Source: Patiria pectinifera (taxonomy: Eukaryota > Echinodermata > Asteroidea > Valvatida > Asterinidae). Taken from it: a stretch of 64,000 nucleotides of DNA. Under the pieces are notes generated by a model. It was not told the DNA's origin, did no database searches, and was given only the letters and a program-made list of their open reading frames with translations. The translations under genes were made by a program, and so were the position numbers. The stretch is from positions 1,178,001 through 1,242,000 of the forward strand of contig CM057141.1 in the NCBI GenBank assembly GCA_029964075.1, given 5' to 3'. How positions within the stretch are numbered: position 1 is the stretch's first letter; each line of letters begins with the position of its first letter. Below, piece after piece: positions 822-44,163 of this stretch.

Positions 822-918
822 CAAAAAAAATAAATGCTTTCTAACTGACAATATGACTGCGCACTGTTGGCTGATGAAGATGCACCTCAGGAGGGGGAGG
901 GGTGACTAATGTACATAC

Positions 919-1245
919 CTGTCGGTTTGTCCTCACCGCAGATGACCCCAGCATTGTCACTGGGAGTGCAGGTCCGTGTATCGTATTCCTTACTGCAGTC
1001 TGCCAATTTGTCCTCCGCCCCCGAGCAATCCATCTTCGTCCAAAGTGTCTCCCCGCTTCCCCGGCCAAAGTACGACGATCCAGGGGCTGAGATGGCCTTC
1101 GGGTAGCCAAGCTGCCAACACGCAACTGTAGCATCGGCGATGTCCCATCCGTCATCGCAGACTGTTTCCCAAGAACCGCCTCGGTACACTTCCACCCGGC
1201 CTTCCATAGCGCTGCTACCATTCACTACACGTACGTCATATAGCT
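919..1245 (-). CDS. SRCR gene exon 8: SRCR domain 7
   Basis: 109-codon exon, LYDVRVVNGSS to VICGEDKPTG. Six cysteines, TVCDDGWD and CWQLGYP motifs, acceptor TTTTAG|AG, donor CAG|GTATGT in phase 1, so at least one more exon follows outside the window. Confidence 0.92.
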
Positions 1246-4200: not shown

Positions 4201-7200
4201 GTGCTTCAGACTTTGACAGAAATGAAGCACCAGAGTTCCGTCCCTCTAAGAAACCTGGATCGTACCTGGATGACTGCAAACAACCCCAGCATCTCTATAG
4301 TGGAGACAGACCGGAGCGTCGCTTTCCTGGCCTTTGCAGAGACCCAACTGCTTTTCTGTCCCCTTGCAGTCAGCATTGCCAAAAACTATGTCCCCGCTGC
4401 CCTGGCCAAAGAACGCCGATCCGGGGGCTGAGGTTGCCTTGCCGTAACCTAGCTGCCAACAAGCCACGGTAGCATCTGTCATGTCCCATCCATCATCGCA
4501 GACTGTTCCCCAAGCATCGTTTAAATACATCTCCACTCGGCCCTCCATATGACTACTGCCGTTCCTCAACCGTAAGTCAAATTTCTCTAAAAGAAATTGA
4601 ACAAAGTATAAAGCCAAGCAGTGTTAACAGCATGTGACTGATTAATTTAGCAATGTGCTAAGCACTAAGCTTTCTGCTATAAAGGCAGGTAAATGGATTT
4701 GGTCTTAATTAAGAAGTCCCTTTTTTACCTACCTGGGAGTGCACAGGTAACCCAAGCGGTAGTGGACTGGGTACAGCTGACGTTGGCGTTCCGTGGACAT
4801 TCCAGCAAGCTACTCTCTAGCCCTGCACATGAGACGCCATTCAATGCTACATCTTCGTTGCCTTGACCAGTATATGCTGATACAGCCTTACCATAGCCCA
4901 ACTGCGAACAGACAACGGTAGCATCGTTGATTTCCCAGCCACTACCGCAGACTGTTCCCCAAGTCTCGTTTACGTACACCTCCACGCGCCCCTGAAGTTT
5001 GTCGGTACCATTCACGAGACGAATCTGGCCTTCGAAATTACGTATACCTATTTAAAATGAGAAAAAGGAACATAATTTTGCACTTTTTTGCGCATTCGTT
5101 TACAGCATTTTCATGGAGTTTCGGTTTTGTTCGAGGACGTGCAAAATGGTCTCTTACCAGGTGTCCCAGTACAGATAACGCCAGCATCCTCTGAGTGGCT
5201 GCAGTCTTTATTCATATCTAGCGGGCAGCCGTACAGATGTGTCTCCGTTCCTCTGCAGGCAACATCATCAAAAACAATGTCGCCGCTTCCTTGGCCAAAG
5301 TAAGCGTTAGACTCAGCTGCTGAGGCCATGCCGTATCCCAGTTGTTGGCATACCACTGTAGCGTCTTGGATGTCCCATCCATGGTCACAGATTGTCCCCC
5401 AAGATTCGTCCACATACACCTCCACCCTACCCGATACGCCAGTGCTACCATTAACGAGACGCAAGTCATATTGACCTGAGGAGGTAGTTGACAGAGAAGG
5501 AAATAATGATTTCGATTATGCTAACAGAACGCTTAATACTTTTACAGATGACATCGATGGCTTTGCGAGTATTCACGAAAGTTCAGCTTGACCAAATTAA
5601 CCAAATTTGGAAGACTCGTTCGTTTTTTTCTGCAGGATGAACGAGTGGAACATGTTCTGCAAAAGCTTTGAAAATGTAATTCAAAATTGTGCCAGGATGA
5701 AACATTTGTTCGGGAACTTATTATCTCTCATTCTTTTTTTAATTTTTGTTTAAAATAAAATTGAAATTGTAATTAAAAACATATTATGTGAGGAGAATAG
5801 ATCAACATACTTGGCAGTTTGGTTCCCTGGCAGACGACGCCAGCATCTTGGGAGTGATTGCAAGATGACATATTGTTGAACGTCACCGAGCAGCTAGACA
5901 AGTTGCTTTCTAACCCCGTACAGTCCACGTCCAATATCCGCCCTTTGCCCACGCCAAAATACGCCCCTCCTGGGGCAGACGCGGCCATGCCGTAGCCCAG
6001 CTGTTTGCAGACTACGATTGCATCGTTCATGTTCCAGTCATTACTGCAGACGGTTGCCCAAGAACCGTTCATGTAGACCTCCACCCGGCCCCTAGTAATA
6101 AGGTGTCCGTGCACAAGACGTACATCATAGTCCTCTACAAGAAAATATTGAAACAAAGTTTAATGCATACCAAAACAAATTAATGCAATCGGCATGTGTT
6201 CCCTTGATATTAGTTTGACTGCGATTATAGGGTGAGCTAATAGTTATAATTTTTGAATCACTTTCGTGTTATAGTTGGATTTATGTGGGCTGATCAGGTA
6301 CACTGTAGTTATTTCGGTATTTTTAAGTTAAATTTTGTACCTCATGTGGTCAATTTCCAGGTGTTTTATTGAACAATTTTATTTCTAAATTTTCTACTAT
6401 ATTCTGTTGCCCCTCGAGGACAAGCAGAGGTAGACAATGATTTTTCCAACTGTAAAATTGAAGGGGGGGGGGGTGGGTGGTTGGGCACTATTTCCTATGG
6501 GGGCGCTGTTCAACCCGACAATCTGAGGCACTATAGGGCAATAGGTGGCGCATTTTGTTATCGTGAAAAAGTGCACTAGCCTATCACCCAGATGGTATAC
6601 TATGCCATTGCAGACTACCTAATGTTTTTCGGTCGCTTATCAGAAACCAAACATTGAATACCCATTTATATCTTTCACTTGACTCTGATACTTTTAGACC
6701 ATAGTTTGCAATTTGCGTCAATGCATGACTGTATCAACATGCTATCTTTATAACAGAGATATTGAGATCTTGGTCCAAAGGCAAAATCTTTATATTTTCA
6801 GTTTTGGTTTTGTGTTTTCGTTTTGCTTCAAATCCTAATGAGAATCGCGTTAACGTCAACATATGTCACTGCGCAAATGCTGATTAGATTTTGCAGATTG
6901 AAATTAAGAAAAGAAAGGCAAAGAATATTTTCCTTGCGTAAGTTGGAAATACCAACGTTAGGCCAAAAAAAGGCTCCGGTTTCTGGTATGGAGCTTGCCC
7001 AAAAAGTGGTGCGGCGACGCGGCTTTTTTTTTTACCTGATTTTTTTTGCTTCAAATGTCAGCTGATGACTGCAAATGGTGCTCGACTAAACTTAGTGCAA
7101 ATATATAATATGGGAGTCCACATAAAGGCCACATAAAGCTTATTCTCGACCATAACCCAATCTAAAAACACGTTAAAATTGTGCAGCAGCAGGATTCCAG

Positions 7201-20981: not shown

Positions 20982-23900
20982 AAAGGTTAAACCCTTACAA
21001 TTAAAATTTTCCAAGAAAAATCAAATTTGGCCCTATTTTGATGAAAATGCAAGGTTTAACCCCTTACAATTTAAATTTTCCAAGAAAAGTCCAATTTGCC
21101 CAATTTTGATGAAAATGCAAGGTTTACCCCTTACAATTTTAATTTTCCAACAAAAGTCAAATTTCACCCTATTTTGATGAAAATGCAAGGTTAACCCCTT
21201 ACAATTTAAATTTCCCAAGAAAAGTCAAAGTTTGCCCAATTTTGATGAAAGTGCAAGGTTAACCCCTTACAATTTAAATTTTCCAACAAAAGTCAAATTT
21301 TGCCCTATTTTGATGAAAATGCAAGGTTAACCCCTTACAATTTTAATTTTCCAACAAAAGTCAAATTTTGCCCAATTTTGATGAAAGTGCAAGGTTAACC
21401 CCTTACAATTTAAATTTCCCAAGAAAAGTCAAAGTTTGCCCTATTTGGATGAAAATGCAAGGTTAACCCCTGACAATTTTAATTTTCCAACAAAAGTCAC
21501 ATTTTGCCCTATTTTGATGAAAGTGCAAGGTTAACCCCTTACAATTTAAATTTTCCAACAAAAGTCAAATTTTGCCCTATTTTGATGAAAATGCAAGGTT
21601 TACCCCTTACAATTTCAATTTTCCAACAAAACTCAAATTTGGCCCTATTTTTATGAAAATGCAAGGTTTACCCCTTACATTTTAAATTTTCCAACAAAAG
21701 TCAAATTTTGCCTAATTTTGATGAAAGTGCAAGGTTAACCTGTTACAATTTAAATTTTCCAAGAATAGTCAAATTTTGCCCTATTTTGATGAACATGCAA
21801 GTTTACCCCTTACATTTTAAATTTTCCGAGAAAAGTCAAATTTTGCCTAATTTTGATGAAAGTGCAAGGTTTACCCCTTACAATTTAAATTTCCCAAGAA
21901 AAGTCAAAGTTTACCCTATTTTGATGAAAATGCAAGGTTTACCCCTTACAATTTAAATTTCCCAAGAAAAGTCAAAGTTTGCCCTAGTTGGATGAAAATG
22001 CAAGGTTAACCCCTGACAATTTTAATTTTCCAACAAAAGTCACATTTTGCCCTATTTTGATGAAAGTGCAAGGTTAACCCCTTACAATTTAAATTTTCCA
22101 ACAAAATTCAAATTTTGCCCTATTTTCATGAAAATCCAAGGTTAACCCCTTACAATTAAAATTTTCCAAGAAAAGTCAAATTTCCCCAATTTTTATAAAA
22201 ATGCAAGGTTTACCCCTTACAATTTAAACTTCCCAACAAAAGTCAAATTTTGCCAAATTTTGATAAAAATGCAAGGCTAACCCCTTACAACTATAGTTTT
22301 CCAAGAAAAGTCAAATTTTGCCCTATTTTGATGAAAATGCAAGGTTTACCCCTTACAATTTTAATTTTCCAACAAAAGTCAAATTTCCCCAATTTTGATA
22401 AAAATGCAAGGTTAACCCCTTACATTTTAAATTTTCCAAGAAAGTCAAATTTTGCCTTATTTTGATGAAAGTGCAAGGTTTACCCCTTACAATTTTAATT
22501 TTCCAACAAAAGTCACATTTTGCCCAATTTTGATGAAAATGCAAGGTTTACCCCTTACAATTAAATTTTCCGCGAAAAGTCAAATTTTGTCCTATTTTGA
22601 TAAAAATACAAGGTTTACCCCTTGCATTTTAAATTTTCCAAGAAAAGTCCAATTTTGCCCTATTTTGATGAAAATGCAAGGTTTACCCCTTACAATTTAA
22701 ATTTTCCAAGAAAAGTCAAATTTTGCCCAATTTTCATAAAAATGCAAGGTCAACCCCTTACATTTTAAATTTTCCAACAAAAGTCAAATTTTGCCTTATT
22801 TTGATGAAAGTGCAAGGTTTACCCCTTACAATTAAAATTTTCCAAGAAAAGTCAAATTTCCCCAATTTTTATAAAAATGCAAGGTTTACCCCTTACAATT
22901 TAAACTTCCCAACAAAAGTCAAATTTTGCCAAATTTTGATAAAAATGCAAGGCTAACCCCTTACAACTATAGTTTTCCAAGAAAAGTCAAATTTTGCCCT
23001 ATTTTGATGAAAATGCAAGGTTTACCCCTTACAATTTCAATTTTCCAACAAAACTCAAATTTGGCCCTATTTTTATGAAAATGCAAGGTTTACCCCTTAC
23101 ATTTTAAATTTTCCAACAAAAGTCAAATTTTGCCTAATTTTGATGAAAGTGCAAGGTTAACCTGTTACAATTTAAATTTTCCAAGAAAAGTCCAATTTTG
23201 CCCTATTTTGATGAACATGCAAGGTTTACCCCTTACATTTTAAATTTTCCAACAAAAGTCAAATTTTGCCTTATTTTGATGAAAGTGCAAGGTTTACCCC
23301 TTACAATTTAAATTTCCCAAGAAAATCAAATTTTGCCCTATTTTGATGAAAATGCAAGGTTTACCCCTTACAATTTATTTTTCCGCAAAAAGTCAAATTT
23401 TGCTTTATTTTGATAAAAATACAAGGTTTACCCCTTACATTTTAAATTTTCCAACAAAAGTCAAATTTTGCCCTATTTTGATGAAAATGCAAGGTTTACC
23501 CCTTACAATTTCAATTTTCCAACAAAATTCAAATTTTGCCCTATTTTCATGAAAATCCAAGGTTAACCCCTTACAATTAAAATTTTCCAAGAAAAGTCAA
23601 ATTTCCCCAATTTTTATAAAAATGCAAGGTTTACCCCTTACAATTTAAACTTCCCAACAAAAGTCAAATTTTGCCAAATTTTGATAAAAATGCAAGGCTA
23701 ACCCCTTACAACTATAGTTTTCCAAGAAAAGTCAAATTTTGCCCTATTTTGATGAAAATGCAAGGTTTACCCCTTACAATTTTAATTTTCCAACAAAAGT
23801 CAAATTTCCCCAATTTTTATAAAAATGCAAGGTTAACCCCTTACAATTTAAACTTCCCAACAAAAGTCAAATTTTGCCAAATTTTGATAAAAATGCAAGG

Positions 23901-24125
23901 CTAACCCCTTACAACTAAAGTTTTCCAAGAAAAGTCAAATTTTGCCCTATTTTGATGAAAATGCAAGGTTAACCCCTTACAATTTAAATTTTCCATAACA
24001 AATTCAAATTTTGCCCTATTTTGATGAAAATGCAAGGTTTATCCCTTACAATTTAAATTTTCCAAGAAAAGTCCAATGTTGCCCAATTTTGATGAAAATG
24101 CAAGGTTAACCCTTTACAATTTCGA
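20982..24125 (+). repeat. Satellite array of about 46 units of 67-68 bp
   Basis: The unit is close to TGCAAGGTTTACCCCTTACA / ATTTAAATTTTCCAAGAAAA / GTCAAATTTTGCCCTATTTT / GATGAAAA. Variants alternate at fixed places: GGTTTACC or GGTTAACC, CCAAGAAAA or CCAACAAAA, GCCCTATTTT or GCCCAATTTT. Marker variants such as 'taaacttccc' recur at 22,225, 22,901, 23,646 and 23,849, that is at spacings of about 10, 11 and 3 units, so blocks of units were copied together. The unit length is not a multiple of three and the short frames through it are not genes. Confidence 0.95.
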
Positions 24126-26689: not shown

Positions 26690-29600
26690 TTATCTGTCGT
26701 CGTTCGGTGCAGGGTCAGTCAGCTGCGTGATTTTCTCCAGGTTGTGGTCCACGGCTTTGCTTAGGAAGGTCAGCCAGGCATTGTCCGCCTCCTTAGCAAC
26801 ATGACACGTCTTGGTTCTATCTAGAAGACTCAGGAGGACCTCAGCCAATTTGTTAGCCTGAGACAGAGAAAAAGAGAAAACAAAAATCAAGGAATTATGT
26901 CTTGAAGACTAGGGCTTGGTGTGAATTGAAAAGATGACAAAAATCCTAAACGGGCAACAACTTAAAGGACCACTAAAAACCCTCTTTAGTGGCTGTTTCA
27001 TAACGGCTGGTTCAATATGCAAATTGCATTGTGAAGCAAACTCCCCAGGATAATAGCCAACGTCAAAATGAAACTTGACTTCATGAAATCTGCTTCGATT
27101 TTACATTCGTGTCAAGTATGAACTAGCCTTAACATTTTAGTACTCAGTTAGCAGAAAATATTCCACGTCAACTGAAGAAATAGTTGGTCATACATTATGA
27201 ATCAGAAATGTCTGAAATGCTTTTGCTCCGGACAAAATGCTTAAAACGTGAACAGTAGTGATTATATTTCAGACATTTGGTCACCATTTTGCAATCCCCT
27301 CTTACGTTTCAGACATTTCAAATGTCTGAAACTTTCAGTCTCCTTGAAATTTCTGAAACATAACATGGCCGGTTTCTTGACAGGCTTTAATACCTTTCAG
27401 ATATTTTGAGGAGAACAGAATGTCGGAAACGTAAGTGGTTATAACAGGTTAACGTCTCAGACATTTTGTCTGGAGCAAAAGTGTTCCAGATATTTCTGGT
27501 TCATAGAGTAACTTTCCAGCAATAATAAGTCATCATAATTTTGAGAGCTTACGTTCTGCCCGACATCCTGATGTCTGATTTGTGGATACAGGCACATGAC
27601 CATGTCGTCGGCAGCCGGGCTGATCCTCTCAGCGATCTCACCCAAATCATCCAGCTGTGCCGCCAATGATTCCTCCTCCCACTGACCGTTAGCTCGTACT
27701 GCACCAGAGACTTTCTTGACGCAGGACTTGGCGGCTTTCAGGAGTCCCATGCTAGGAGGAAGCAGGGTCCTGTCATGCTCACTCCAGCCCTCCTCCTGCA
27801 GGTTGGAGTCACTAGAGGGCGTCCCGGCGATAACTGGGTCAAGGTCTTCCCAGTCTTGTGATTGGCCACCTGTTTCCTGGAGCTACAGGGTGGAGATCAA
27901 TTGATTATGAGTATGGCCCTGCCCATATCTCTTAGTTAGAACTACTGTCTAGGTCTTCACCAATTACAACTACATGGGAACATGCTGACAATCGACGTAG
28001 CTCTATAGCTACGTGGCTCTACAGCTATTACTAAATAAGGAGAGCGTTAATTCTTTCCCTCGACTAGAATAGTTTCGGACAGGTTCTGGGCGCATTTAGT
28101 GTAGTCCAAATATATTGAATACTCAGTGCTGCGCATTCCAAGAGCTTGTTGGAAAACTTTTCACTTCAAATATGAACTGCAAGACATTATGGTTTTTCCC
28201 TAGGGAACTTGATCTAGGAAGGTTCATTACTTTATTGTCAGTAAATCCTCAATTTTTTTTATACCTCTGTGAGTTCTTCCACCGCATCATTAACAAGTCC
28301 TCCTGCTTCCCTCAACACTCCTAGGAGGGCATCCCTGTTGTTCCTTGGGAGTGTCTTGATTGCATCGCAACACTCCCACACATTGCCTGTCCGACGCAGC
28401 TGGCTCTCACTACTGGTTATTGCAATTGTTTTTAAAAAGGATAATTAATTAAACCTAGAATCTTCCGACTTGACAGATATTCAGAAACAGGGAATCCCCA
28501 AATATTTGGCCCGACAGCTCGATCGGTGTTGCATCAATAGTATGGACTTCTGGGGTTGAAGGATTAGTCTATTGGCTCTGTGCATAAATATAGAGGGCGC
28601 TCTGTGATCTCTTCCGACAGCCCTGGTGGGAGGGGCACACTATGTGTACGCTTTGGTTTGCGCATGTAAGATGCTTATTTTGCATGTGCACAAAGCACAG
28701 CATCTTGGCGTGAGCGTCAGGCGCCAGCATCTTGGCTAGAGCGTCTTGGCGTGAGCCTCTTGGCGTGAGCGTCTTGGCGTGAGCATCTTGGCGTGAGAGT
28801 CAGGCGCCACAGGCAATGCATTCGAATGTCCCTCCCACTGGTCTGCCCCGACTCCTCCTTTGTAACTGTTGAGGGGGGTACTGGACTGGATTGCAAACTA
28901 AGCAATGTTACGCAGGGTTAGATTTAGACGGACCTCTGGCAATAGAAACAGACCAACCTGTGATAGTGGTCATCTTTGATTTGCTTGGTGAGCGCCTTCA
29001 TTCCTTCCACTACTTCAGTCACTGCATGCCGCGTGCCTTTGCGGAGAATTACTCCTGGTTCGTCATAATTGGAGGAGAAAGAGCACAAGAACAAAATGTC
29101 AAAACAGTGAATTATGCCATGATGGGTCATTCTAAAAATTTGGCGTCCACTTTTTTCCTGTCTCTGTTACATCTGACATCTATTTCTTAATGCAGTCGTC
29201 CTCCAAGAAGGATTATGAAATTTATGGAGTGTCATGGCCTAGCAGTTAAGAGCACCGGGGTTCGCCCCGGTGTCCTGGCAGTGGCCGCAGCACCTTGTAA
29301 ACCCTTATAAGGTGCTACATAATGGGTTTCATATTTCTCATGTACTTCATTCATGTAACAATAGACATAACTCCCAGTGCCTTGAGTAACTATACTCCGT
29401 TGCGATAATGCCTGAATAGGTTTCTGCAACGTAACCATACAGATAATAGACAGAATAACGGTCTACCTACCCAACATACAAAATAAAATCAGTTGAAGTC
29501 ATTCTGAATGATACTTGAAGACAAATTACAAAGTATCAAGGTAACAGGGACAGAAAAAATGTCACACTTTGGACTCGCAATTTATAGAAGGACCCACATG

Positions 29601-31242
29601 TGACTGCAACTGAAAAGATGCTATGGGTTTTGGCACATGAAAGTTGGTCATGCACACTGCACATGAGTCTCACTCACTGACGGTGTTGTAATGGATCACA
29701 AGTCATCACAAGTCATCACAAGTCCATCACAAGTCCATCACAAGTCCATCACAAGTCATAAGCTGAAAAGGGCAATCCGTTGATATTGTTCATCCCCTGT
29801 TACTTGTGACTGGGCTTGTGATGGAGTGTCATGGCCGAGGGATTAAGAGCTCCGGACTCATTCTCTGGTTGTTCTGATCATCAGCGTGTGGGTTTGAGTC
29901 CCGAAATTGACACCTGTGTCCTTAAGCAAGACACTTAACCATTATTGATTCGGTTAAGAGCACCAGACTCAAGCCCTGGTGTTTCTGGTCAGCAGAGTGT
30001 GAGTTCGAGTCTCGGTCTTGACATTTGTTTCCTTATAATTAACCAAACACTTAACCTTTATTGCTTCATCCTTCGGATGGGACGTGCAGTCACAGTTCCC
30101 GTGAGTTGTATAATGCACGTAAAAGAACCCAGTAACACTTATCGCTAAGAGAAGGGGTTCGTCCCGGTGTTTCTGGCAGTACATTTATCCTCATACACAT
30201 GAGGCTGCACTTTCAATGAAGGAAGGCAGTACCATGCTGCCCACAGGTTTCCATAATTCTAGCGCCATTTACTGTTTCCACATTACCTTTCTCTTTAGGC
30301 AGCCCGTAGAACGCAGACACTAAGGCTATGGCTGACATCTCAACGCTGGCGATAAGCGACTGGCATTCGTCTGGCTTGGGTAATGGCGGCTTACTAAACC
30401 AAACGGCTAGCTTTGTGGCTTCCGTTGAAACGGACTCAAACGCAGTTCCTGTACAGCAAAGAGAAAATACATTGATATCAGAAACTATTTTAAGAATCTG
30501 GTGTTGTACAAAGAAGTGGTATGGCAATACCAACATGGTTTATAAAGTCTTTACAGAAAAATGTCTTTACAGAAAGCATCATGTAGAAAAACAAGTTTGC
30601 CAGTTACATCTAACTTCTAACCAGACAAATGCATGTTCTTTTTTTTTTACTTTTCCAAATCGCATCTTTAAAAGTTCAATGCTTTTAGTTTTAACAATGT
30701 TTTTGTCTACAAAGAGGTACTTTAAGTTAACATATCATGTAAAGTATGCAGATTATAAATGATATTTGTAAAGAAACTCACCAAGTTTCTTCCAGAAATC
30801 TTCTAAGTTGTAAGAAGGTGATGTAGGTCGAGGCGAGTCCTCTTCTGCCAAAAAAATATTGATAAAATGGTCTTAAAACAAAATACAAAGTTAACCTTAT
30901 AGGCCTCCTAAACATGTCAAATATGAATTAATAAATTTTCTTTTTTAGAACAATGATGAGGGCGGTACCTACATTAAATCCCCCTCAGTGTGACTAAAAG
31001 TAATAAGTTTTTCAAAACATATTCTTTCCAAAAAAAAGAAGTCAAAGATGAAATTTCAGAATTTTAGTGCGACATCCCAGTGGTCCCACCACACCCATCA
31101 TAAATATCCAACCTCCACCATGTCCACATTGGCGTTTAAAAGAGCAAAGAAAGACAATACACTTACCCTTCAGCTTGTCGATCACCATATCTAGATTCTC
31201 AATGAATGTATCAAAGATGTTGTCCAGCTGTGATGAAGCCAT
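26690..31242 (-). CDS. CCNDBP1: Cyclin-D1-binding protein 1 (GCIP/HHM homolog), complete
   Basis: Exons 31242-31167, 30844-30782, 30448-30287, 29054-28958, 28409-28265, 27882-27553 and 26857-26690 give 346 codons plus TAA; human CCNDBP1 is about 360. Boundary phases (1,1,1,2,0,0) all agree. Recognisable conserved stretches are the aromatic ...LEDFWKKL near the N-terminus, FSKPPLP, GVILRKGTRHAVTEVVEGM, NVWECCDAIKTLPRNN, the acidic linker followed by GWSEHD, AAKSCVKKV, AQLDDLGEIAERISPAADD and the final AVDHNLEKITQLT. The protein is largely helical and in vertebrates binds cyclin D1 and bHLH factors and restrains cell-cycle entry. The start is the ATG inside GAGCATGGCT; a GTG just upstream is not needed. 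Introns carry a 16-bp minisatellite, SINE heads and a 10-bp minisatellite. Confidence 0.92.
28588..28890 (+). repeat. Dispersed repeat, family J (left-half copy) in CCNDBP1 intron 4
   Basis: 'gagggcgctctgtgat', 'gggaggggcacactatgtg' and 'ttgaggggggtact' match the left half of the copy at 19,995. Its middle is expanded into the minisatellite at 28,690-28,815. Confidence 0.6.
28690..28815 (+). repeat. 16-bp minisatellite (GCGTCTTGGCGTGAGC)
   Basis: Five to six tandem variants of GCGTCTTGGCGTGAGC, with 'catcttgg' alternates and two 'gtcaggcgcca' boundaries. It looks like local expansion inside the family J repeat. Confidence 0.8.
29226..29300 (+). mobile_element. Fragmentary tRNA-derived SINE head
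   Basis: 'gtgtcatggcctagcagtta' (A-box-like), 'agagcaccgggg' and 'ttcgccccggtgtcctgg' resemble the complete copies at 29.8-30.2 kb, fused in a shortened order. It lies in CCNDBP1 intron 3. Confidence 0.5.
29692..29762. repeat. Minisatellite of ATCACAAGTC units
   Basis: About six tandem units of 'catcacaagtc' (10-11 bp), the complement of the motif at 2775-3120 and the same orientation as the one at 43,545. Confidence 0.85.
29822..30185 (+). mobile_element. tRNA-Leu-derived SINEs (two copies in tandem)
   Basis: Copy 1 (about 29,826-29,945): GTGTCATGGCCGAGGGATTA (A box), anticodon arm CCGGA-CTCATTC-TCTGG, long variable arm, 'gtgggtttgagtccc' (B box) and TGACAC pairing with the initial GTGTCA, then 'tccttaagcaagacactta'. 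Copy 2 (about 29,946-30,185): 'cggttaagagcaccaga', loop CTCAAGC with a Leu CAA anticodon, 'gagttcgagtctcgg', then 'cttcggatgggacgt' and 'gcacgtaaaagaaccca'. The long variable arm and CAA anticodon point to tRNA-Leu ancestry. The trailing bodies show these are SINEs and not functional tRNA genes. Confidence 0.7.
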
Positions 31243-33424: not shown

Positions 33425-36400
33425 TTACTTAGGCGGGTAGAGATTGACCTTAGCTGGGAACATCTGTCCAGCGATATCAATCTCATACTTAGCCTTGGTC
33501 ACATAGTCGTGAGTGACCACTTGCGTCTGACCGGTCTGAGGGTCAGTATTGTTCAGCCAGCCTAGACACAGCATGGAGCCTAAGGTGGGGCTGAAGCTAC
33601 TGGACGTGGTCATTCCGGCCAGCTGACCGTTTCGATAGATGGGTTCACTGCCCCAACACCAGAGATCTTTGTCCACTTTGTGATCCTCCATGACGAATGC
33701 GACTAACCGACGATGGATGCCCTCACGTTGTTGCCTTAGCAACGCTGACTGACCTATGAACTCCAGTTTCTAATTCCAAAACAGAAACAAAAAGATCAGA
33801 TTCAATCAAATGCCAAATCCAAACTGAATAGTTATGCAAAGAAATAAATGTATTTAGGTTTATTCTGAAATGAGGAACCATGCAACAACACTTGCTCCCA
33901 GTGGCAGCGCAAACATTTTGAAAGTGGGGGGGGGGGGAACTGCAGTATATGTCGACCTTCCCGATAATCAAAAGCGACTATTTCATCCTATTACTTCCAG
34001 AGACAGTAGACTACAGAATTTTTTTTTTTTTTTATGTTGATCCAAATATAGGGCCTTAGGTACACTATTTTGTGATCTGCCAAGAGGATCCCCCCCCCCA
34101 CCCCCCACCCCGGTGGAAAAATCGGGAGAGCCAATGGCCCCCCGTTGCTTGCTCCCCAAATCTTACTTTGTCATATTTCACTGCCGTCTCATGTCCAATT
34201 TCCAGTGGGGTGTCTTCGTTGCCGAAGTCGACGCCCCAGTTTGGGTAGAACTGTTCCACAGTCAGCCATCTTAGGGCGTGGTATCCAGCTGGACGTATAC
34301 CGTACTCGCTGCCGGCAGACATCAATGTGGCGTATACATGCCTGGCAGACTTGAGGGAGAAACAAGTTGAAAATCAAGATTGATATCTTGTGTGAAGATG
34401 CTGGTTATCATTATGGAAGATGTCAAAATGAAGTTACTTTTGTAAGCGGCATGAGTGTCAACTCTCCTTTTATCCTTGCGCCAAGTACGAACTCATGCAC
34501 TTCCTGATAAAATGTCTCCACGAGAAAGATCTACAATACACCACGACAAAGCCATTACAACAGACTCTTAGAATTGCCCAAGACATTCATCTTAACACAG
34601 AAGTTCAAGAAGGGCAACTCCCATACCTCATTAGGAATAAACAGCATCATTCCATCCTCATCTGTGTCTGTTACTGTCATGGCGCGAACCCCTGACGCAA
34701 AACCAAAGTTTAGCTCCTGAAAAAAGCAGACATTTTTAAATTGAAAGAATGTCACCCCTTTTTAGATATTGTCTTAAAACTTTCTTGCATGCTGTTTAAA
34801 AAGATGGGCTTTTAGGAACAAGCAGGGTTCAAAGTTTTCAGATGGACAAGCCGTGACAAGAAGTGACACTTCTGCCTTATTTTCTATGTAAAGCAATGAC
34901 AGTGATGGACAAGCAATGACAGCAACAACTTCCATCTGACCTTGTAACAGAATGGTTTGAAGCTTGCTGTGTCGAGTGGCGTGTTGGTCAATTTCTGCAA
35001 GACATCTCTGGCTTTTGGTCCCAGGACATTCAGACCGGTCAACTGACCGGTCACATCTCGTAGCTTGACCGAGCCGTCATTAGGCAGATGCCTGGCGATC
35101 CAGTGATATCCCGTGACTTGCTGAATAGTGGGACAGACGATGAAATACCTAGAATTGAAGACAAAATGAAAATCCATCTGTTGAGATTTGATTTAGACTA
35201 CAGCACTCAAAGGAATAAGTGTTTTTGACAGCTGAAGTGATCTTGTAAAAACTGCCGTTGAAATGTGTTCAACTGTTGCAAATGTCTAAAGTAAAAACTT
35301 GACGCAACAAAAACATGATGTAATGCATTTCCATATGTGCTGATTATGAAAAGGCCGCGAGGCAAGGTTGAAAAGGGAAGGGGGGGGTTGGGATTTCAAA
35401 ATGGACCAACCTATCTTCCTCCAAGCGAGCTATACTGCAATAGACCTCATAACCACCATGCTCATTGAGCATCCCAGAATGCACCACACTTCCTACAGGA
35501 ACGTCTACGTCATTGGCACACAATGTCTGAAGTAGGGACGTTACCATCTCACCCTAACAAATTAGGAAAAAATGCCAAACATTAAACAGTTCTGAGAACT
35601 TAACAATGCTAACATTCTGGTTGGGCACAAATGACAGCACTGTTTTCCCAATTAGTCTTTTGTTTTACTGATCACGAGTGAATTCTAAAAACAAGCACTG
35701 AAAGTAGCAGTTTGTAAAGCACGATGAACCAAATAAGCCTTTAAACTGGACTTTTGCCAGGTTTTATTATCTAAGAAATATGAGCGGTGGCAATTTTTTT
35801 TTAGTTTTCATACCTCCAACTCAAATGTTGTGACAGACGACACATCGATCACGGCGACCGCTTCACGGCAAGCTAGATACTCTGCCTTGACCTGATCAAA
35901 CCAGACCGGCTTAGTAAACGTCCCTCGCTGTATGTCCTCAACCATGGCCTCTGAAACAAGACCACTCAAATTGAATTTCTGCGTGTTCTCAACCATGGCC
36001 TCTGAAACAAGACCACTCAAATTTGAATTTCTGTATGTCCTCAACCATGGCCTCTGAAACAAGACCACTCAAATTTGAATTTCTGTATGTCCTCAACCAT
36101 GGCCTCTGAAACAAGACCACTCAAATTTGAATTTCTGTATGTCCTCAACCATGGCCTCTGAAACAAGACCACTCAAATTGAATTTCTGTATGTCCTCAAC
36201 CATGGCCTCTGAAACAAGACCACTCAAATTTGAATTTCTGTATGTCCTCAACCATGGCCTCTGAAACAAGACCACTCAAATTTGAATTTCTGTATGTCCT
36301 CAACCATGGCCTCTGAAACAAGACCACTCAAATTTGAATCCCTGGTTTAAATGTCTGTTTCCACTTATTTTTCACACAAAAAAGTCAAGCTGAACACATA

Positions 36401-39400
36401 GTTACAGTTTTTATGTTAGTGAGACTTCAAATGCAGAAAGAGTGACAGAGAATGGATGAATTGAAACATACCACTGGCTCCCTCTCCCAGGTACAACTGG
36501 GGTATCTCCACTCCCATGCACTCCTCAAACACCGCCCCCGCTTGCACATGCTGGTCATGCAGCGTAGTACACCGTAGGTTTCTTGCCGTCTGGCATTGCC
36601 TAAAAGGGTAGCCTATTTTGAAGGCCATTCCTGAACAAAATAGAAAATTATGTCATATCCAGAGGAAAAGTTCAAACAAACTGAATTTGGAGGGAAGAGT
36701 ATAATACTAAGGGACCGTGACCATTCAGCCCTGGTATGAAAAGGGCCCCCCAGTACCTCGTCCGGTCCAGAGCCAGTCCGGTCTTCAGCCCAGTCTCATC
36801 CGGTACATGGTCCTATCTGACCAGAAGTTTTGAAGTCAGTCAGGCGCATCAATTTATTGCCCTGCAGAGAACCTCCAGAGCAGAACAATAGCAGACTTAC
36901 CAGATTAAAGATAAAATCCTTCCAAACGCCTTGGTAATTTACGGTCCCATTGTGTGCGAAACCGCATGGCAGGGGTTTTGATCTGTGCCGACGAAAGTGT
37001 TCTATTGTTTCGCGCTGAGAGATGAAAACCACAAGCGGGTTTCTTCTGGGATAAATTACATGTGTCAATACTTGCAAACAATAGACCCGAGTATAGACGA
37101 GTTCCTGATCAGCAACCGGATCAGCTCCTGGGCCGGTAGCTGGGACGGTACGAGAGGACTTCTTGGGAGGGGACGAGCTTACCGGGGGGCCCTTTTCATA
37201 CCGGGGCTGAATGGTCACGGTCCCTAACCGACACAGATTGTTGCTATGTTTGCCTGCTCGGTTTTAGAGGGTTTTCCATACCTTGTGTTGGGCCTTGTCT
37301 TTGTCCTCAAAAGATATTTTGGCCCCTGATTTGGGGACTCTGGCTCAATGTGGGTCCGTGGTCCACTTCAGGGACATTAAATCGTAGATAATGAGGCCAA
37401 ATTTTAGAGAATTAAAAACATGTTTACAACTTGCCAAAATGGACACCACCTCAATGGTGCCATCTCAGCAACATGGCTTCTTAATTGTGGTGTCCAAAAC
37501 AGACTATATACCTTCGATTTCTGCAACCCTCTCTCTAAGGTACACCTTGTTGTTCTGTTGCGGTGAGAAGCGTTGAGGGTTGACTGACCAGTTTCCGAGG
37601 AAAGTCTCTCCTTGAACGATCAGCTCAGCTAAGAGTTGTCCCAAGCCGCCAGACATGGTGACCCCAATCATGCTAATCCCAGTCATCAGGTAGTAGTTTC
37701 TCATCTAGGAATAAGCCAGCAGTACAGACTAAGCTCAACATCATATTTTTGAATCAACAAAATTAGTGGGCATTTCTCCGCGTCCTCTAAAATCCTCTAC
37801 TGTGCAGGAACCCAATGGCACACTCTTTGTACCTACCAAGTTTCAAGGAGCATCAAGCTCCATGTAAAGTAAAAGTGGCGGGGTTATCTACCTTCCTCAA
37901 TCCTACAAAATCCTCCACTTTGCAGGAACCCAATGACAAGCTCTTTGTACCTACCAAGCTTCAAGGAGCATCAAGCCCCATGTCAAGAAATAGTGGCTGA
38001 AGTTCAATTTTCATTGATCCAATAAAACCAATCAAACCTTTCTGTTGGATTCTGAAAGATCTAGGAGGGTCAAGGGCGGATCCAGAACACAATTTTGGGG
38101 GGGGCCAAAAAATTTTTGGTGCCCCAAAAAAGTGGGTCAAAAAAATTACGGCGTGGGGTTCGGGGCCCGCTTAAGGGCCCCGAAATTTTTTTGGATTCTA
38201 GATGCTCTGTGGTGCGATCTGAGGCAATTTCTGACCACTTTAACCAATGTTTTTTTGAGGAAAAAATGGTGGTGTACTCATTGCCTGCCTTTATTGCGAT
38301 GTCACATAAAAAAAAAAAAAATGGTTTCGTTTTGGGGGGGGCCATGGCCCCCTTTGGCCCCCCCCTGGATCCGCCCTTGAGGAGGGTCAGAGTTCATGTG
38401 TAGTGTAATGTGGTAGGCATAAGTGTATACAGAGTGAGCGCGACAAATCAAAAATGGCCGGCATTACTTGATATCGTCAGGGTATCACCGTCAAGGTTAA
38501 AAAAGATTTTTGGATTTGACGGATTGATGGTTACCTCTGCAGCTTCACCGAAAAAAAACTTTGAATCCGGAGTGAAGCACTCTGGTCCCAGAAAGAATTG
38601 CCGCACTTCCATTCGTTCCCCCGATGGAATCCGGTGGAGAAACTTTTCCATTACAAAGTCTTTGCAAAAGAAGGTAGAAAAGAAAATTACACTGTCATAG
38701 TATTTGTCGAAATGTTTTTATGCTTATTCTCCAAAGCAAAGGGATCCTTAACTCTAGATACATCGTGAGCTTCAAAACAGCTCCATTATTTTTTAATGGC
38801 TGTCCAGAATGTAATGCCAACGTGAGCACCTTAACGTTAGAAAATTGTCAATAGTGGCAATATAAAAATTGTGACTCAAAGTGGATGCTCGAAGAGGTCT
38901 GATTGGGAGTTACAAAGCAGACAATATTTTTCTGACAGACTTACTGAAAAGATCCGGGTCCTCTGGAAGAGATAAAAACTCGGACTTCTCAGGGATTCCT
39001 TCGTGGAAGATTGGCACGGAAACAGGAGGAATGAGGCAGCACAGGACACCACCACTCCACTCACGGAACAAGATGTGGCTATCAAAATCACGGACATCTG
39101 TCCAAGAGTTGAAGGAGGATGAGAGTAGGTATTAACCATTAGCGCCTGTGTGATACTGTATTACATTGTAACGTATTAAGCACATTGTATTTACATTGTA
39201 AGGTATTAACCACTAGCACATGTTTTAAATTGTATTACATCAGTTTGTTTTTGTCCAGCCACCCATAAATAAAAATATGAATGCGTGTGCATACATGGAG
39301 TCATGTGATTTAGATCCAGTCCTGGTAGCGGCTTAGTGATCAGGTATCCGTGTGCAGTGGAGTGCATTGGTACATTGACTATGGGTCGACTCATCAATCC

Positions 39401-42400
39401 AACATCTCGACTCCACTGAAACAACAAAAATATGAATCAAAAATGGTTCAAATAATTATGGGCAGTAATGACACATTTTATTAGCATTTAATCAATTGCT
39501 GGTTTGGGGTTGACAAAATTGGAAAAAAAACTGAAAAAGCTGACCCTATTGCTCAAAATTTTATGTGCTTTTCAGAATGTGTACGTTCTTGTAAATTAGG
39601 CTGTATGCTGCCCTCTACAGTCCCTGCATGGAGTCAATTCCACATTGACAGTTCCTTACCTGTCCTGCTGCATTGACAAAGTAGTCACATTGGATGTCAC
39701 CCAGGGACGTCTGAACTTGAGAAACCTTTCCATCTTCCGACAGCACAGCTTTGACTTGGACCCCTTCTAAGATCTTGACACCTATCCAGAAAATTGTTTG
39801 AAACAAGACATCACAACACAAACTAACAGACCAAGTGAAGACAAAACGACAAACACACACATAAAAAACAGCCAAAAGCACAACAAAACACATTCCACGG
39901 AATCATAATGTCACTGATTTAAGCAACTTTTTCAGCTTAAGGTATATATGCCTTTTGCTATGCTAACTGCCTACTGTTTCCATGAAATAGACAGAGGCTC
40001 GATTAGCAGAAATTAATGCACTTAGCCATCGCATCCTAACCTAATTGGGAATATGTTCCCAATTAAGAATGGGCCATATTCCAATGTAAGACCATATCCG
40101 AATTACTTGGCTGCGAATGGAAATTACAAACGGGTCTATGGTAGCCGCTGCAGCCACTTCCAATAGACTCCTGTGTTACTTCCAAGGGTAGTACAGTGTA
40201 GTACAGTGTAATACAATGTAGTACAGTGTAATACAATGTAGTACAGTGTAATACAATGTAGTACAGTGTAATACAATGTAGTACAGTGTAATACAATGTA
40301 GTACAGTGTAATACAATGAAGTACAGTGTAATACCATGTAATACAATGTATTACAATGTAATACAATGTAGTACAGTGTAATACACAGTGTAATACAATG
40401 TAGTACAGTGTAATACACAGTGTAATACAATGTAGTACAGTGTAATACACAGTGTAATACAATGTAGTACAGTGTAATACAATGTAGTACAGTGTAATAC
40501 AATGAAGTACAGTGTAGTACACAGTGTAATACAATGTAGTACAGTGTAATACAATGAAGTACAGTGTAATACAATGTAGTACAGTGTAGTACAATGTAGT
40601 ACAGTGTAGTACAATGTAGTACAGTGTAGTACAATGTAGTACATTGTAGTACAATGTAGTACAGTATAATACAATGCAGTACAGTGTAATACAATGTAGT
40701 ACAGTGTAATACAATGTAGTACAGTGTAACACAATGTAGTACAGTGTAATACAATGTAGTACAGTGTAATACAATGTAATACAGTGTAATACAGTACATT
40801 ATAATACAATGTAGTACAGTGTAATACAATGTAGTACAGTGTAGTACAATGTAGTACAGTGTAGTACAGTGTAGTACAATGTAGTACAGTGTAGTACAAT
40901 GTAGTACAGCGTAGTACAATGTAGTACAGCGTAGTACAATGTAGTACAGCGTAGTACAATGTAGTACAGCGTAGTACAATGTAGTACAGTGTAGTACAAT
41001 GTAGTACAGTGTAATACAATGTAGTACAGTGTAAAACAAGTAGTACACTGTAGTACAATGTAGTACAGTGTAGTACAATGTAGTACAGTGTAGTACAATG
41101 TAGTACAGTGTAGTACAATGTAGTACAGTGTAATACAATGTAGTACAGTGTAATACAATGTAGTTCAGTGTAATACAATGTAGTAGTACAATGTAGTACA
41201 AGGTAGTACAATGTAGTACAGAAGCCAATATGGCAAAGACTCTCGCTGACCAACCTCTGTTTTTAGCACCCTTTGCCAGAGACAATGCAGTGTTTGTTGG
41301 GTCAGTCACAGCGTCATCAGGTAGAAACATGGCTCCCTCGAGATCATCCGTCCTTACCCACGGAACAATGGAGTGAACCTCGGAGGGTGCCATCAACGTG
41401 CAGTTCACATTCCTCGTCCTTGGAGGAAACGAAACACACATCAAAAACACGACTGAAATGTGCTATGTTCTGTCACCAACATAACGCAAGCCTAATAAAG
41501 CTGGTCCCAGAGTGCACACAATTATCTTAAAGCTACAGTCCATTATTTGCAGCGATCCAAAAAGTAACTGACGTAATTATTGTTGAAAAGCATACTTGGT
41601 TTAAAGATAGTAATGGGACTTAACTCCCCATTTCGAACAATGCGTCTAAAGACGCATCCTTGGAAATTCCCGTTGGTAGTTCGTGTCTTATTCGGCGAAA
41701 CGCGCACAGGCACATGACTCACATGTGCCCGCGGTTGCTATGATTCGTAGGTCCAGTGTGCGACATTGCGTAGCTGCAATCGGCTCAGTGAGAACGTGTC
41801 TCGGACGCTGAATTCTGGTCCAATTCAAAACATGACTCAGCAACTTTTGATTTGAAATCGAGATCCTAGAATATTGTTTTCTTGGAATATACAGCATTCA
41901 CTGAGCTGAAACTTCATCAGGTTAGTTGTTCAGCACCCTTCTTTAGATTTGGAGTACTTTCGTTGCTTCAAACGAACATAATGCACAAATAACAAATGAT
42001 TTACGATACCTTAATTGACTGTGAATGGATGTTCAGTGGAAATCTTTTCATGCATCTGGTCTAAACAATAATCGAAATACAAGTGAACACAGAAATTGGA
42101 GCGGAATTTATTAAGGACTGTTCAGTAATACTTACTTGGCCAAAGCAGCAATTCTCTTGATGTCAATCATGCGATCTTTGGTTTGTGCTAGGAGCACGCA
42201 TCCCACTTCTCTATATCCTACACAGAACAAGTTTGTAATTTCATTTTCTCAGACTATAGGAAAAACTCAATTATTAGTGCATTGTCTGCTTTTAAATCGA
42301 AACATGTAAACATTTGGGAAATTCTTTTTTCATTTTATCAAAGGAACAAATTATGTGAGTATAGATCATCAACTTGTCAGTGATGTGTGTCATGTAAACA

Positions 42401-44163
42401 CAAACAAAACCCGCCTCTTCAAATTTTTGTAATACAGAAATTAAAGTAGTGGCTGTGTATGATGAATACATGGGGGAGTCATTGACATTTTCATATTTCT
42501 GATAACATTTGAAAAGTCTAAGAATTTGACGTGTTCCTGTTACACCACAGATTTGTGCATATTTTGTAGAAAATTGGTTGTACGCACTTAACGCCATACA
42601 TGCACAAAATGAACCAGAACATGTCCACGATGTGTCCTAGTCCGAAAATTGGGACTCTCAATACTGTGTATGAGAGTCCCAAAACTTAAGGTATCCATAT
42701 CATGCAAAAGTTTGTGCTGCATAATAAAACCAGTGTGAATCAAATTTGCAAGCTTCTTACTCACTACAGTTTCCTCAATAATCCCCGAAACTTCTGCCTC
42801 GCAAAGTTGCTGTTGTGAGCATTGTATCACCAAAAATTCAGTTTTTAATTCTAATTTTGCAGAGAGTTATCGAAATCCAAACGTGAGACATCACGTTGAT
42901 GTGTACTGCAATGCATTGTGCAAAAAAAACTCCCTAGCTAGAACATTTTCATCTTGTAGATAAAGCAGCGCCCTCTTGTTGATCTGGGTGAATGTAGAAT
43001 GTTTCATTTTTTAACAGAGGGCGCTATGTTCATTTGGCTATCAATTAAAAAACAAGTAAGCTGCAAGGCTCTTCCTACACCTACCCAGAATACATTGGGA
43101 ATCACACACCCATTTCCAGAGCATGGAGATTGACGTGGATGGTTTTTGAACTGCCAAAAACTTGCCTTAAAATTGGATTTAAGGTCTCAAATTTCGCAGA
43201 TGACATGCTTGCAACTATATCATTTTGATGTATGTGTTGTGTGGGCATTAATTAGCCTAATGGTGAGTAAAAAAACGTCAGTAGTAATTTTGCACATTTT
43301 TATGCACTCACGGTCCCAGAGCTGGATGTGCCCTAGACTTCCCGCTTGGAGATAATACCTGTACTGAGACCTGTTTCCTCTTCCAGCGTTTTGTAAAGTC
43401 TGGCGCTCATGGTTGAGAGTGCGGGCAATGCTGGCTTTCGGAAGTGACTGATGATTCCGGCTGAATGCCATGTTGTTCCAGAGGTTAGTCTAGTGAAACA
43501 AAAAACACCGATGCAAACACAGATGTATGCAGAGATGTTAAAGAGTAAATCGTATGTCAATCACAAGTCAATCACAAGTTAATCAAAATTCCATCACAGG
43601 TCAATCATAAGTAATTAAACAGTTTCTCACAAGCCCATCGAACAAAAGCCGATCGAGAGTTGATCACACGTCAATCAGAAGTCAATCAAAAGTCAATACA
43701 AGCCAACAACAAGTCAATTAGAAGTCATTCATAAGTTAATCACAACTCAATCACAATAACTCACAAAGCAACCAAATGTCACATCATAAAAGAAAAGGAA
43801 CTCCTTTGAACAAATCCACTAAAATTCCAACAATGTCTGTGCAGTAGTCATTTTCTGAATACATCAAAATCATTCAAAACCAAGCAACTGATTGTGGTAG
43901 ATTTTTGGCAGTACCGGTACTTGGTCTAACCTTCCTTGTTCCAGCAGCACGACGTCTGTCTCTCCCAGTTTGGCCAGGTTATAGGCCGCTGACAGACCCG
44001 CTATGCCCCCTCCACAGATAACAACTCTAGCCTGCTGGGGTACAGCTTGTTCATCAATCGACGTCGAGCTGAACCTACTGTAGACTTGTGGGGTGTCTGT
44101 AACATATCTGCTGGGAAGTCGGATTCGTCGACTCAGCCAACTTGCAATTTGTGTGCGTAACAT
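33425..44163 (-). CDS. PDPR: Pyruvate dehydrogenase phosphatase regulatory subunit-like flavoprotein (PDPR), mitochondrial, complete
   Basis: Sixteen exons: 44163-43931, 43489-43359, 42217-42136, 41418-41255, 39781-39660, 39415-39295, 39097-38945, 38659-38535, 37704-37512, 36630-36472, 35950-35814, 35553-35411, 35148-34941, 34716-34627, 34349-34167, 33769-33425; all phases close, giving 862 aa (human PDPR is about 880). Order of parts: Arg-rich mitochondrial presequence (MLRTQIASWLSRRIRLPSR), FAD-binding VVICGGGIAGLSAA (48-61) and LLEQGR, DAO-type oxidoreductase domain, then a GCV_T/aminomethyltransferase-like C-terminal half with VVHSGMLNEHGGYE, GIRPAGYHALR and the ending YEIDIAGQMFPAKVNLYP. 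These match PDPR better than DMGDH or SARDH. PDPR lowers PDP1 sensitivity to magnesium in vertebrates. The motif TTWHSAG after exon 1 keeps a His that I do not recall in mammalian PDPR. Introns hold a hAT MITE, a decamer array and duplicated acceptors. Confidence 0.9.
35928..36338 (-). repeat. Eight tandem 51/52-bp repeats carrying the PDPR exon 11 splice acceptor
   Basis: Copies start at 35928, 35979, 36031, 36083, 36135, 36186, 36238 and 36290 (the last is partial). On the minus strand each unit holds a pyrimidine tract, TTGTTTCAG and then AGGCCATGGTTGAGGACATA, which is the first 20 bases of exon 11. Copies 1 and 5 are 51 bp; the other full copies are 52 bp because of one extra base in the AAATTTGAATTT segment. 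Copy 1 is the acceptor joined to the conserved exon body. Confidence 0.95.
38071..38379. mobile_element. hAT-type MITE in PDPR intron 8
   Basis: Ends CAAGGGCGGATCCAG and CTGGATCCGCCCTTG are exact inverted repeats. An exact 8-bp target duplication AGGAGGGT flanks it (38063-38070 and 38380-38387), as expected for hAT. The interior is G-run rich and encodes no transposase. Confidence 0.88.
40188..41220. repeat. Decamer array (TGTARTACAR)n in PDPR intron 4
   Basis: About 103 tandem decamers alternating 'tgtagtacag' and 'tgtaatacaa', with a few 8-bp interruptions ('cagtgtaatacacag'). The unit is nearly self-complementary. Reading frames on the minus strand stay open because the unit has no stop in any phase there; they translate as YYTVLHCTTL-like decapeptides and are not called as separate genes. 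Confidence 0.95.
41555..41990 (+). repeat. Dispersed repeat, family K, copy 2 (PDPR intron 3)
   Basis: 'actgagctgaaacttcatca', 'cttctttagatttggagt' and 'catacttggtttaaaga' correspond to the copy at 25,735. It is interrupted by unrelated sequence in the middle. Confidence 0.55.
43545..43760. repeat. Degenerate minisatellite of TCAATCACAAG units (PDPR intron 1)
   Basis: Repeated 'tcaatcacaagt', 'tcaatcagaagt' and 'tcaataca' words with a period of about 10-11 bp, the same family as 2775-3120 and 29,692-29,762. Confidence 0.8.

What the first reader, a model, noticed from the sequence alone, without database searches (positions are those of the whole stretch)
35928..36338. Eight tandem copies of a PDPR splice acceptor
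The repeat unit contains the end of intron 10 and the first bases of exon 11, so eight nearly identical 3' splice sites lie in a row on the minus strand. By reading frames, only copies 1 and 2 are productive: copy 1 gives the conserved protein, and copy 2 adds 17 in-frame residues (EAMVENTQKFNLSGLVS). Copies 3 to 8 pass through at least one 52-bp unit, shift frame and reach a TGA in the next unit. The array could act as a splicing rheostat that diverts transcripts into decay, or scanning from the branch point could silence all but one site. Array length probably varies between individuals.
Basis: partly seen in the sequence, partly recalled or inferred. Interest (0 to 1): 0.72.

Follow-up and report, generated by a model that had tools for sequence, protein, structure and literature searches.

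The report
Eightfold repeated splice acceptor in PDPR
In an echinoderm, most likely a sea star, a short tandem repeat has copied one intron-exon border of a mitochondrial enzyme-regulator gene eight times in a row, a kind of structure described before in amphioxus; most copies would ruin the message if used, so it is a natural test of how cells choose among identical splice sites.

Summary
The array is real: TRF gives 35928-36339, period 52, 8.0 copies, 97% match. Eight identical TTTCAG|AGGCC acceptors lie on the minus strand of a PDPR-like gene. The frame claims hold: copy 1 gives the conserved protein, copy 2 adds EAMVENTQKFNLSGLVS, copies 3-8 all reach a TGA. Splicing from copy 1 gives one open frame over 13 exons, aligned to dimethylglycine dehydrogenase at E=2.7e-64 with no room for 17 extra residues.

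This is a "mirage": a minisatellite spanning an intron-exon boundary, described in amphioxus Adh3, troponin C, globins and PGBD5. There it was reported or inferred not to disturb normal splicing; in one globin its length differed between haplotypes. The window is not amphioxus: the genome carries bindin and about 22 chromosome-sized contigs, hence an echinoderm, probably a sea star.

The scanning idea fits poorly: from the nearest consensus-like branch point, three AGs come before the array. Each unit looks like a self-contained acceptor. I favour exon definition choosing copy 1, with unknown leakage to decay. The rheostat is untested. New member of a known kind, new host group; interest modest.

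The parts
35928..36339 (-). 52/51-bp minisatellite, 8 copies, spanning the intron 3' end (28-29 nt per unit) and the first 23 nt of the exon
   Evidence: TRF; units compared
35814..35950 (-). exon spliced from acceptor copy 1 (137 nt), conserved product; coding exon 10 in this model (11 if a mini-exon is missing)
36472..36630 (-). preceding exon (159 nt), ends GCCAGTG, phase 1; donor GTATGT at 36471
35951..35956 (-). acceptor copy 1 TTTCAG (exon length 137): productive
36002..36007 (-). acceptor copy 2 TTTCAG (exon length 188): in frame, +17 residues
36054..36059 (-). acceptor copy 3: +103 nt, TGA
36106..36111 (-). acceptor copy 4: +155 nt, TGA
36158..36163 (-). acceptor copy 5: +207 nt (multiple of 3) but TGA inside
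36209..36214 (-). acceptor copy 6: +258 nt (multiple of 3) but TGA inside
36261..36266 (-). acceptor copy 7: +310 nt, TGA
36313..36318 (-). acceptor copy 8 (nearest the 5' donor): +362 nt, TGA; intron would be 159 nt
36340..36471 (-). unique 5' part of the intron, with consensus-like branch points (YTNAY; branch A at 36457, 36420, 36416, 36385)
33428..44163 (-). PDPR-like gene (DAO + GCV_T + GCV_T_C domains) that holds the array
   Evidence: Pfam; open frame over 13 exons; PDB dimethylglycine dehydrogenase E=2.7e-64; the PDPR name itself rests on recall

Best explanation
A minisatellite has expanded across the 3' splice site of one intron in a PDPR-like gene of an echinoderm (most likely a sea star). 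Each unit carries the last 28-29 nt of the intron (weak branch-point-like TTCAA, short pyrimidine stretch, TTTCAG) and the first 23 nt of the exon, so each is a complete acceptor of equal strength. It is the same kind of object as the amphioxus 'mirages'. SHOWN: the array, the identity of the eight acceptors, the frames, conservation of the copy-1 product. INFERRED: the spliceosome mainly uses copy 1 because exon definition (pairing of an acceptor with the downstream donor over a normal exon length) favours the acceptor next to the body of the exon; use of copy 2 would add 17 residues in the linker before the GCV_T domain; any use of copies 3-8 yields a premature stop and would be removed by nonsense-mediated decay. 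The array is most likely a tolerated by-product of repeat turnover, not a regulator.
For: Array and acceptors. Frames. With copy 1, 13 exons in consistent phase give 713 residues and a stop, matching dimethylglycine dehydrogenase over residues 8-680 (E=2.7e-64); at the junction the protein already has 5 residues more than that enzyme, so 17 more are not part of the conserved product. Exon size: 12 internal exons measured, the copy-1 exon among them, are 90-208 nt, mean 150; copies 1 and 2 give 137 and 188 nt, copies 3-8 give 240-499 nt. Equal acceptor score at all 8 copies (7.9 bits on a recalled weight matrix; 13 other acceptors of the gene 2.3-12.6). [quoted passage not shown] Adh and TnC mirages are said not to generate aberrant mRNAs in PMC3902484 (passage). 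The array has one place in the genome, so it is not a dispersed repeat.
Against: No RNA evidence of any kind was available. All eight local acceptors are identical, so sequence alone does not say which wins; copy 8 is nearest the 5' donor and proximity could favour it. The array acceptor is atypical in this gene: AG-free stretch 12 nt against 22-81 nt in 12 other introns measured, and no YTNAY branch point in range, against 7 of 12 others with one, so splicing here may be inefficient. Predicted folding gives copies 1 and 2 only slightly more open acceptors (0.50 against 0.36-0.38), weak support at best. The gene model has one unresolved frame break in the second exon, so the allele might be non-functional and then under no constraint. 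Paralogues that could relieve the gene were not tested (search did not complete).
Confidence: 0.68

Rival explanations
1. Splicing rheostat or hypomorphic allele: a sizeable share of transcripts uses copies 3-8 and is destroyed by nonsense-mediated decay, so the number of repeats sets the amount of PDPR-like protein and varies between animals.
For: Acceptors are equal in score; 6 of 8 lead to a stop 21 or 38 residues after the junction, upstream of further exon junctions, which by established rules makes such mRNAs decay substrates; five of seven spacers are identical, so the array is young or freshly homogenised; globin mirage BflGb6 has 6 and 3 units on two haplotypes (PMC3087553 passage).
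Against: No expression data; amphioxus mirages were reported or inferred not to disturb regular splicing; nothing shows selection on the stops: four out-of-frame outcomes (copies 3, 4, 7, 8) follow from 52 not being a multiple of 3, and the two in-frame ones (copies 5, 6) still stop because a 52-bp unit shifts frame within them.
Confidence: 0.17
2. Scanning model: one branch point in the unique intron selects a single array AG and silences the others.
For: Consensus-like YTNAY sites exist only in the unique part of the intron (36457, 36420, 36416, 36385).
Against: Downstream of 36385 AGs end at 21, 30, 43 and 58 nt, before the copy-8 acceptor at 72 nt; linear search takes the first AG beyond about 12-15 nt (PMC1431707 passages), i.e. 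none of the eight array acceptors, and products from those four AGs stop after 5, 2, 4 and 43 residues.
Confidence: 0.08
3. Assembly artefact: the true locus has one or a few units and the array was expanded in assembly.
For: Only one assembly was seen, without reads; a globin mirage in the amphioxus draft appears mis-assembled (PMC3087553, supplementary-file legend in the main text).
Against: Chromosome-scale assembly; the 412-bp array is shorter than one long read (sequencing method not known here); it holds distinguishable units (51-bp and substituted ones) in a regular order, and collapse rather than expansion is the usual error (general knowledge).
Confidence: 0.07

Closest known systems
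Amphioxus 'mirages' (minisatellites over exon-intron boundaries: Adh3, troponin C, globins BflGb6 and BflGb9, PGBD5)
   Same: Tandem units spanning an intron-exon border, carrying the splice signal, inside a conserved gene; unit length in the published range (10-160 bp); near-identical units, as expected from homogenisation.
   Different: Host is an echinoderm, probably a sea star, not a cephalochordate; gene not among those named; splicing outcome and length polymorphism unknown here.
Variable internal tandem repeats at exon-intron boundaries of human segmental-duplication genes (PMC2812944, passages)
   Same: Minisatellite units at an exon-intron border that can alter splicing.
   Different: There they are in young primate paralogues and can create new introns. 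Here the unit holds four GT dinucleotides that were not scored as donors, so a new intron inside the array is untested.
Distant-branch-point, AG-exclusion-zone introns (PMC1431707, passages)
   Same: Also concern choice of the 3' AG by search from a branch point.
   Different: Defined by a long AG-free stretch; the array acceptors have the shortest one measured in this gene, 12 nt.
NAGNAG tandem acceptors (PMC3250501, search listing and abstract start only)
   Same: Competing acceptors in a row.
   Different: 3 nt apart and frame-neutral; here 51-52 nt apart and mostly frame-breaking.

Membership tests
Mirage (minisatellite-like tandem duplication of an intron-exon boundary) | Tandem units that span an exon-intron boundary | tested here: met
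   8 copies, each unit 23 nt of exon plus 28-29 nt of intron
Mirage (minisatellite-like tandem duplication of an intron-exon boundary) | Units carry AG/GT splice signals ('many, but not all' in the description) | tested here: met
   8 of 8 carry TTTCAG|AGG, 7.9 bits each
Mirage (minisatellite-like tandem duplication of an intron-exon boundary) | Regular mRNA splicing continues | not testable with these tools
   No RNA data; only that the copy-1 product is open and conserved over 13 exons
Mirage (minisatellite-like tandem duplication of an intron-exon boundary) | Length instability between haplotypes | not testable with these tools
   One place in one assembly; near-identical units only suggest recent turnover
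Scanning-type intron with distant branch point | Long AG-free zone between branch point and 3' AG | tested here: not met
   AG-free stretch 12 nt at every copy; 22-81 nt in 12 other introns of the gene
PDPR (pyruvate dehydrogenase phosphatase regulatory subunit) | FAD-oxidoreductase plus GCV_T and GCV_T_C architecture, related to dimethylglycine dehydrogenase | tested here: met
   PF01266, PF01571, PF08669; 4pab E=2.7e-64
PDPR (pyruvate dehydrogenase phosphatase regulatory subunit) | Orthology to vertebrate PDPR rather than dimethylglycine or sarcosine dehydrogenase | not tested
   No PDPR sequence turned up in the tools; the C-terminal motif resemblance is recalled, not computed

The most novel reading that the evidence does not exclude
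The array is a copy-number-variable splicing rheostat in a metabolic gene: the number of identical acceptors sets the fraction of transcripts sent to nonsense-mediated decay, so length alleles give graded PDPR-like dosage among animals.
Probability: 0.1. Interest if true: 0.68.

Novelty: new member of a known kind. Interest (0 to 1): 0.36.

Why it matters
Eight equal acceptors with the same local sequence, most of which break the frame, make a clean natural experiment on how a 3' splice site is chosen: branch-point scanning, proximity to the donor and exon definition predict different copies. It also takes boundary-spanning minisatellites, which I saw described mainly for amphioxus, to an echinoderm, where they could be a source of hypomorphic alleles or of new introns.

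Tried and rejected
Amphioxus as the source: considered first because of the mirage papers; rejected because the genome has bindin, a pattern of about 22 chromosome-sized contigs and no GFP-family match (weak, since none of the 14 control genomes matched either). Mitochondrial COX1 as a label of the phylum: no match in the assembly. Rfam on the window: 0 matches at gathering threshold.

In 0 of 40 did an array of period 10 or more cross the edge of the kinase match; arrays within 60 bases of an edge were listed. Edges are those of the domain match, not of proven exons, and some matches are pseudogene-like. In L076 a 7-bp array touches the edge by 2 bases; in L059 two arrays lie 46-49 bases away. 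Such arrays are therefore not very common at exon borders, with wide error. Within the PDPR-like gene arrays cover about 16% of the length, and of the exon edges tested only this one lies in an array.

RNA folding of the region separates copies 1-2 from 3-8 only slightly; not used as proof. Second-haplotype search: the flank 36340-37263 matched elsewhere only through a mobile-element-like segment, with 40 of 268 candidates scored. A search for PDPR-like paralogues by protein was asked for eight times and never answered, so paralogues are untested. One intron (second exon's acceptor) dropped out through a coordinate slip, leaving 12 others.

Full report
OBSERVATION. Tandem Repeats Finder reports an array at 35928-36339 with period 52, 8.0 copies and 97% matches. 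On the minus strand the string TTTCAG|AGGCCATGG occurs eight times, with first exon bases at 36312, 36260, 36208, 36157, 36105, 36053, 36001 and 35950. The seven spacers are 52, 52, 51, 52, 52, 52 and 51 bp. All five 52-bp spacers are identical. Both 51-bp spacers lack the same single base, and the one that starts at copy 2 has three further substitutions. Period 207 scores slightly above period 52 (803 against 789), which suggests a later duplication of a four-unit block. The upstream flank reads CCAGGGATTCAAATTTGAG and the units read TACAGAAATTCAAATTTGAG, so a shared CAG may have seeded the first duplication (inference). This is far beyond chance.

GENE. The array lies in a gene on the minus strand. 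Pieces of its product match the FAD-dependent oxidoreductase domain, the aminomethyltransferase folate-binding domain and its C-terminal barrel. Splicing the third to the last exon, with acceptor copy 1, gives 13 exons in consistent phase and one open frame of 713 residues with a stop. That protein aligns with dimethylglycine dehydrogenase 4pab over residues 8-680 at E = 2.7e-64. The name PDPR fits this architecture and the C-terminal sequence as I recall it; no PDPR sequence turned up in the tools, so orthology is not tested. At the array junction the copy-1 protein already has five residues that dimethylglycine dehydrogenase lacks, so the 17 residues added by copy 2 are not part of the conserved protein.

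FRAMES. Joining the preceding exon (last base 36472, phase 1) to each acceptor gives an open frame for copy 1 and for copy 2 (+51 nt, EAMVENTQKFNLSGLVS). Copies 3, 4, 5, 7 and 8 stop 21 residues after the junction and copy 6 after 38. Copies 5 and 6 add a multiple of three bases and would return to frame, but contain stops.

ORGANISM. The window is part of a 613.5-Mb assembly. I first thought of amphioxus. The genome contains bindin (E = 1e-33), a sperm protein of sea urchins and sea stars (PMC4063459, passages). Of contigs C1-C22, the lengths of 19 were shown and are 15-55 Mb, and the other three (C5, C8, C17) have matches beyond 14 Mb; C37, C434, C584 and C753 are 50 kb or less; C23-C36 were not seen. 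About 22 chromosomes fits sea stars: the Plazaster borealis assembly has 22 chromosome-scale scaffolds, a number its authors call consistent with other Forcipulatida (PMC9270726, passages). GFP-family genes, of which amphioxus has 16 (PMC2679011, abstract start in the listing), gave no match (weak, because no control matched either). I therefore take the source to be an echinoderm, most likely a sea star; the species is not identified.

PRECEDENT. Tandem repeats over exon-intron borders are known in amphioxus as 'mirages'. [quoted passage not shown] PMC3902484 (passages) adds PGBD5, where undisturbed splicing is inferred, and troponin C. PMC2812944 (passages) describes minisatellites at exon-intron borders in young human paralogues that can create introns. 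The paper that I looked up as the original Adh3 report (DOI recalled) was not held. My searches of this open-licence library showed no report for an echinoderm; only named echinoderms (2 papers listed: one on bindin, one the PGBD5 paper), while searches were on the structure or on amphioxus.

MECHANISM. All eight acceptors have the same local sequence and the same score, 7.9 bits on a recalled weight matrix, within the range 2.3-12.6 of 13 other acceptors of the gene. [quoted passage not shown] Consensus-like YTNAY sites in the intron lie only upstream of the array. From the one nearest the array (36385) AGs end at 21, 30 and 43 nt, before the array, and at 58 nt, in its first unit, ahead of the copy-8 acceptor at 72 nt; products from these four stop after 5, 2, 4 and 43 residues. 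Scanning from there would therefore not select an array acceptor. Inside each unit the only candidate is TTCAA, 22-23 nt from the CAG, with a GAG so close that it should be bypassed. Each unit thus looks like a complete, rather weak acceptor: the AG-free stretch is 12 nt, against 22-81 nt in 12 other introns of the gene, and no YTNAY is in range, against 7 of 12 others that have one.

With equal local signals, context must decide. Twelve internal exons of the model, the copy-1 exon among them, are 90-208 nt; copies 1 and 2 give exons of 137 and 188 nt, copies 3-8 give 240-499 nt. Exon definition therefore favours copies 1 and 2; nearness to the 5' donor would favour copy 8, with a 159-nt intron. 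The conserved protein needs copy 1, and the precedents say that regular splicing continues. I conclude that copy 1 most likely dominates, that upstream copies leak to an unknown extent and are removed by nonsense-mediated decay, and that the array is mainly a tolerated product of repeat turnover. None of the splicing steps is shown here.

LIMITS. There is no RNA, no second haplotype (one place, 40 of 268 candidates scored, the others only through a mobile element) and no second individual. Paralogues are untested, because the search did not complete. The second exon of the gene has a frame break: the conserved-looking continuation YYLQAGSLGHIQLWD lies in another frame than ...ETGLSTG, and the phases of the second exon's donor and the third exon's acceptor do not match (donor 43311, exon start 41418), which suggests a missing mini-exon or a damaged allele. 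If the gene is damaged, the array may be under no constraint.

VERDICT. The rheostat reading stays open at about one in ten.

Noticed in passing
43489-43312 (minus strand), second coding exon: Frame break...EETGLSTG in one frame, the conserved-looking YYLQAGSLGHIQLWD in another; and the donor at 43311 does not match in phase the exon that starts at 41418. Sequence error, damaged allele or missing mini-exon.
   Followed up: partly
36707-37228 (minus strand), in an intron of the same gene: About 520-bp high-copy element: 39 other places among the 40 scored (of 268 candidates) at 94-96% identity, with roughly 55-bp ends that also match in inverted orientation; MITE-like.
   Followed up: partly
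40188-41221 and 29695-29757; also L059 1167-1452 and 1771-1839: A 10-bp TAATACAATG-like and an 11-bp ATCACAAGTCC minisatellite of the window both recur on either side of a kinase exon match on another chromosome: dispersed minisatellite families.
   Followed up: no
20983-24122: 3.1-kb satellite-like array of a 68-bp unit, 46 copies, with a 203-bp higher-order period.
   Followed up: no
844-6159 (minus strand): Several SRCR-like ORFs (by eye); two of them tested and matched Pfam SRCR.
   Followed up: no
27460-30539 (minus strand): ORFs with GCIP N- and C-terminal domains (CCNDBP1-like), downstream of the PDPR-like gene.
   Followed up: no
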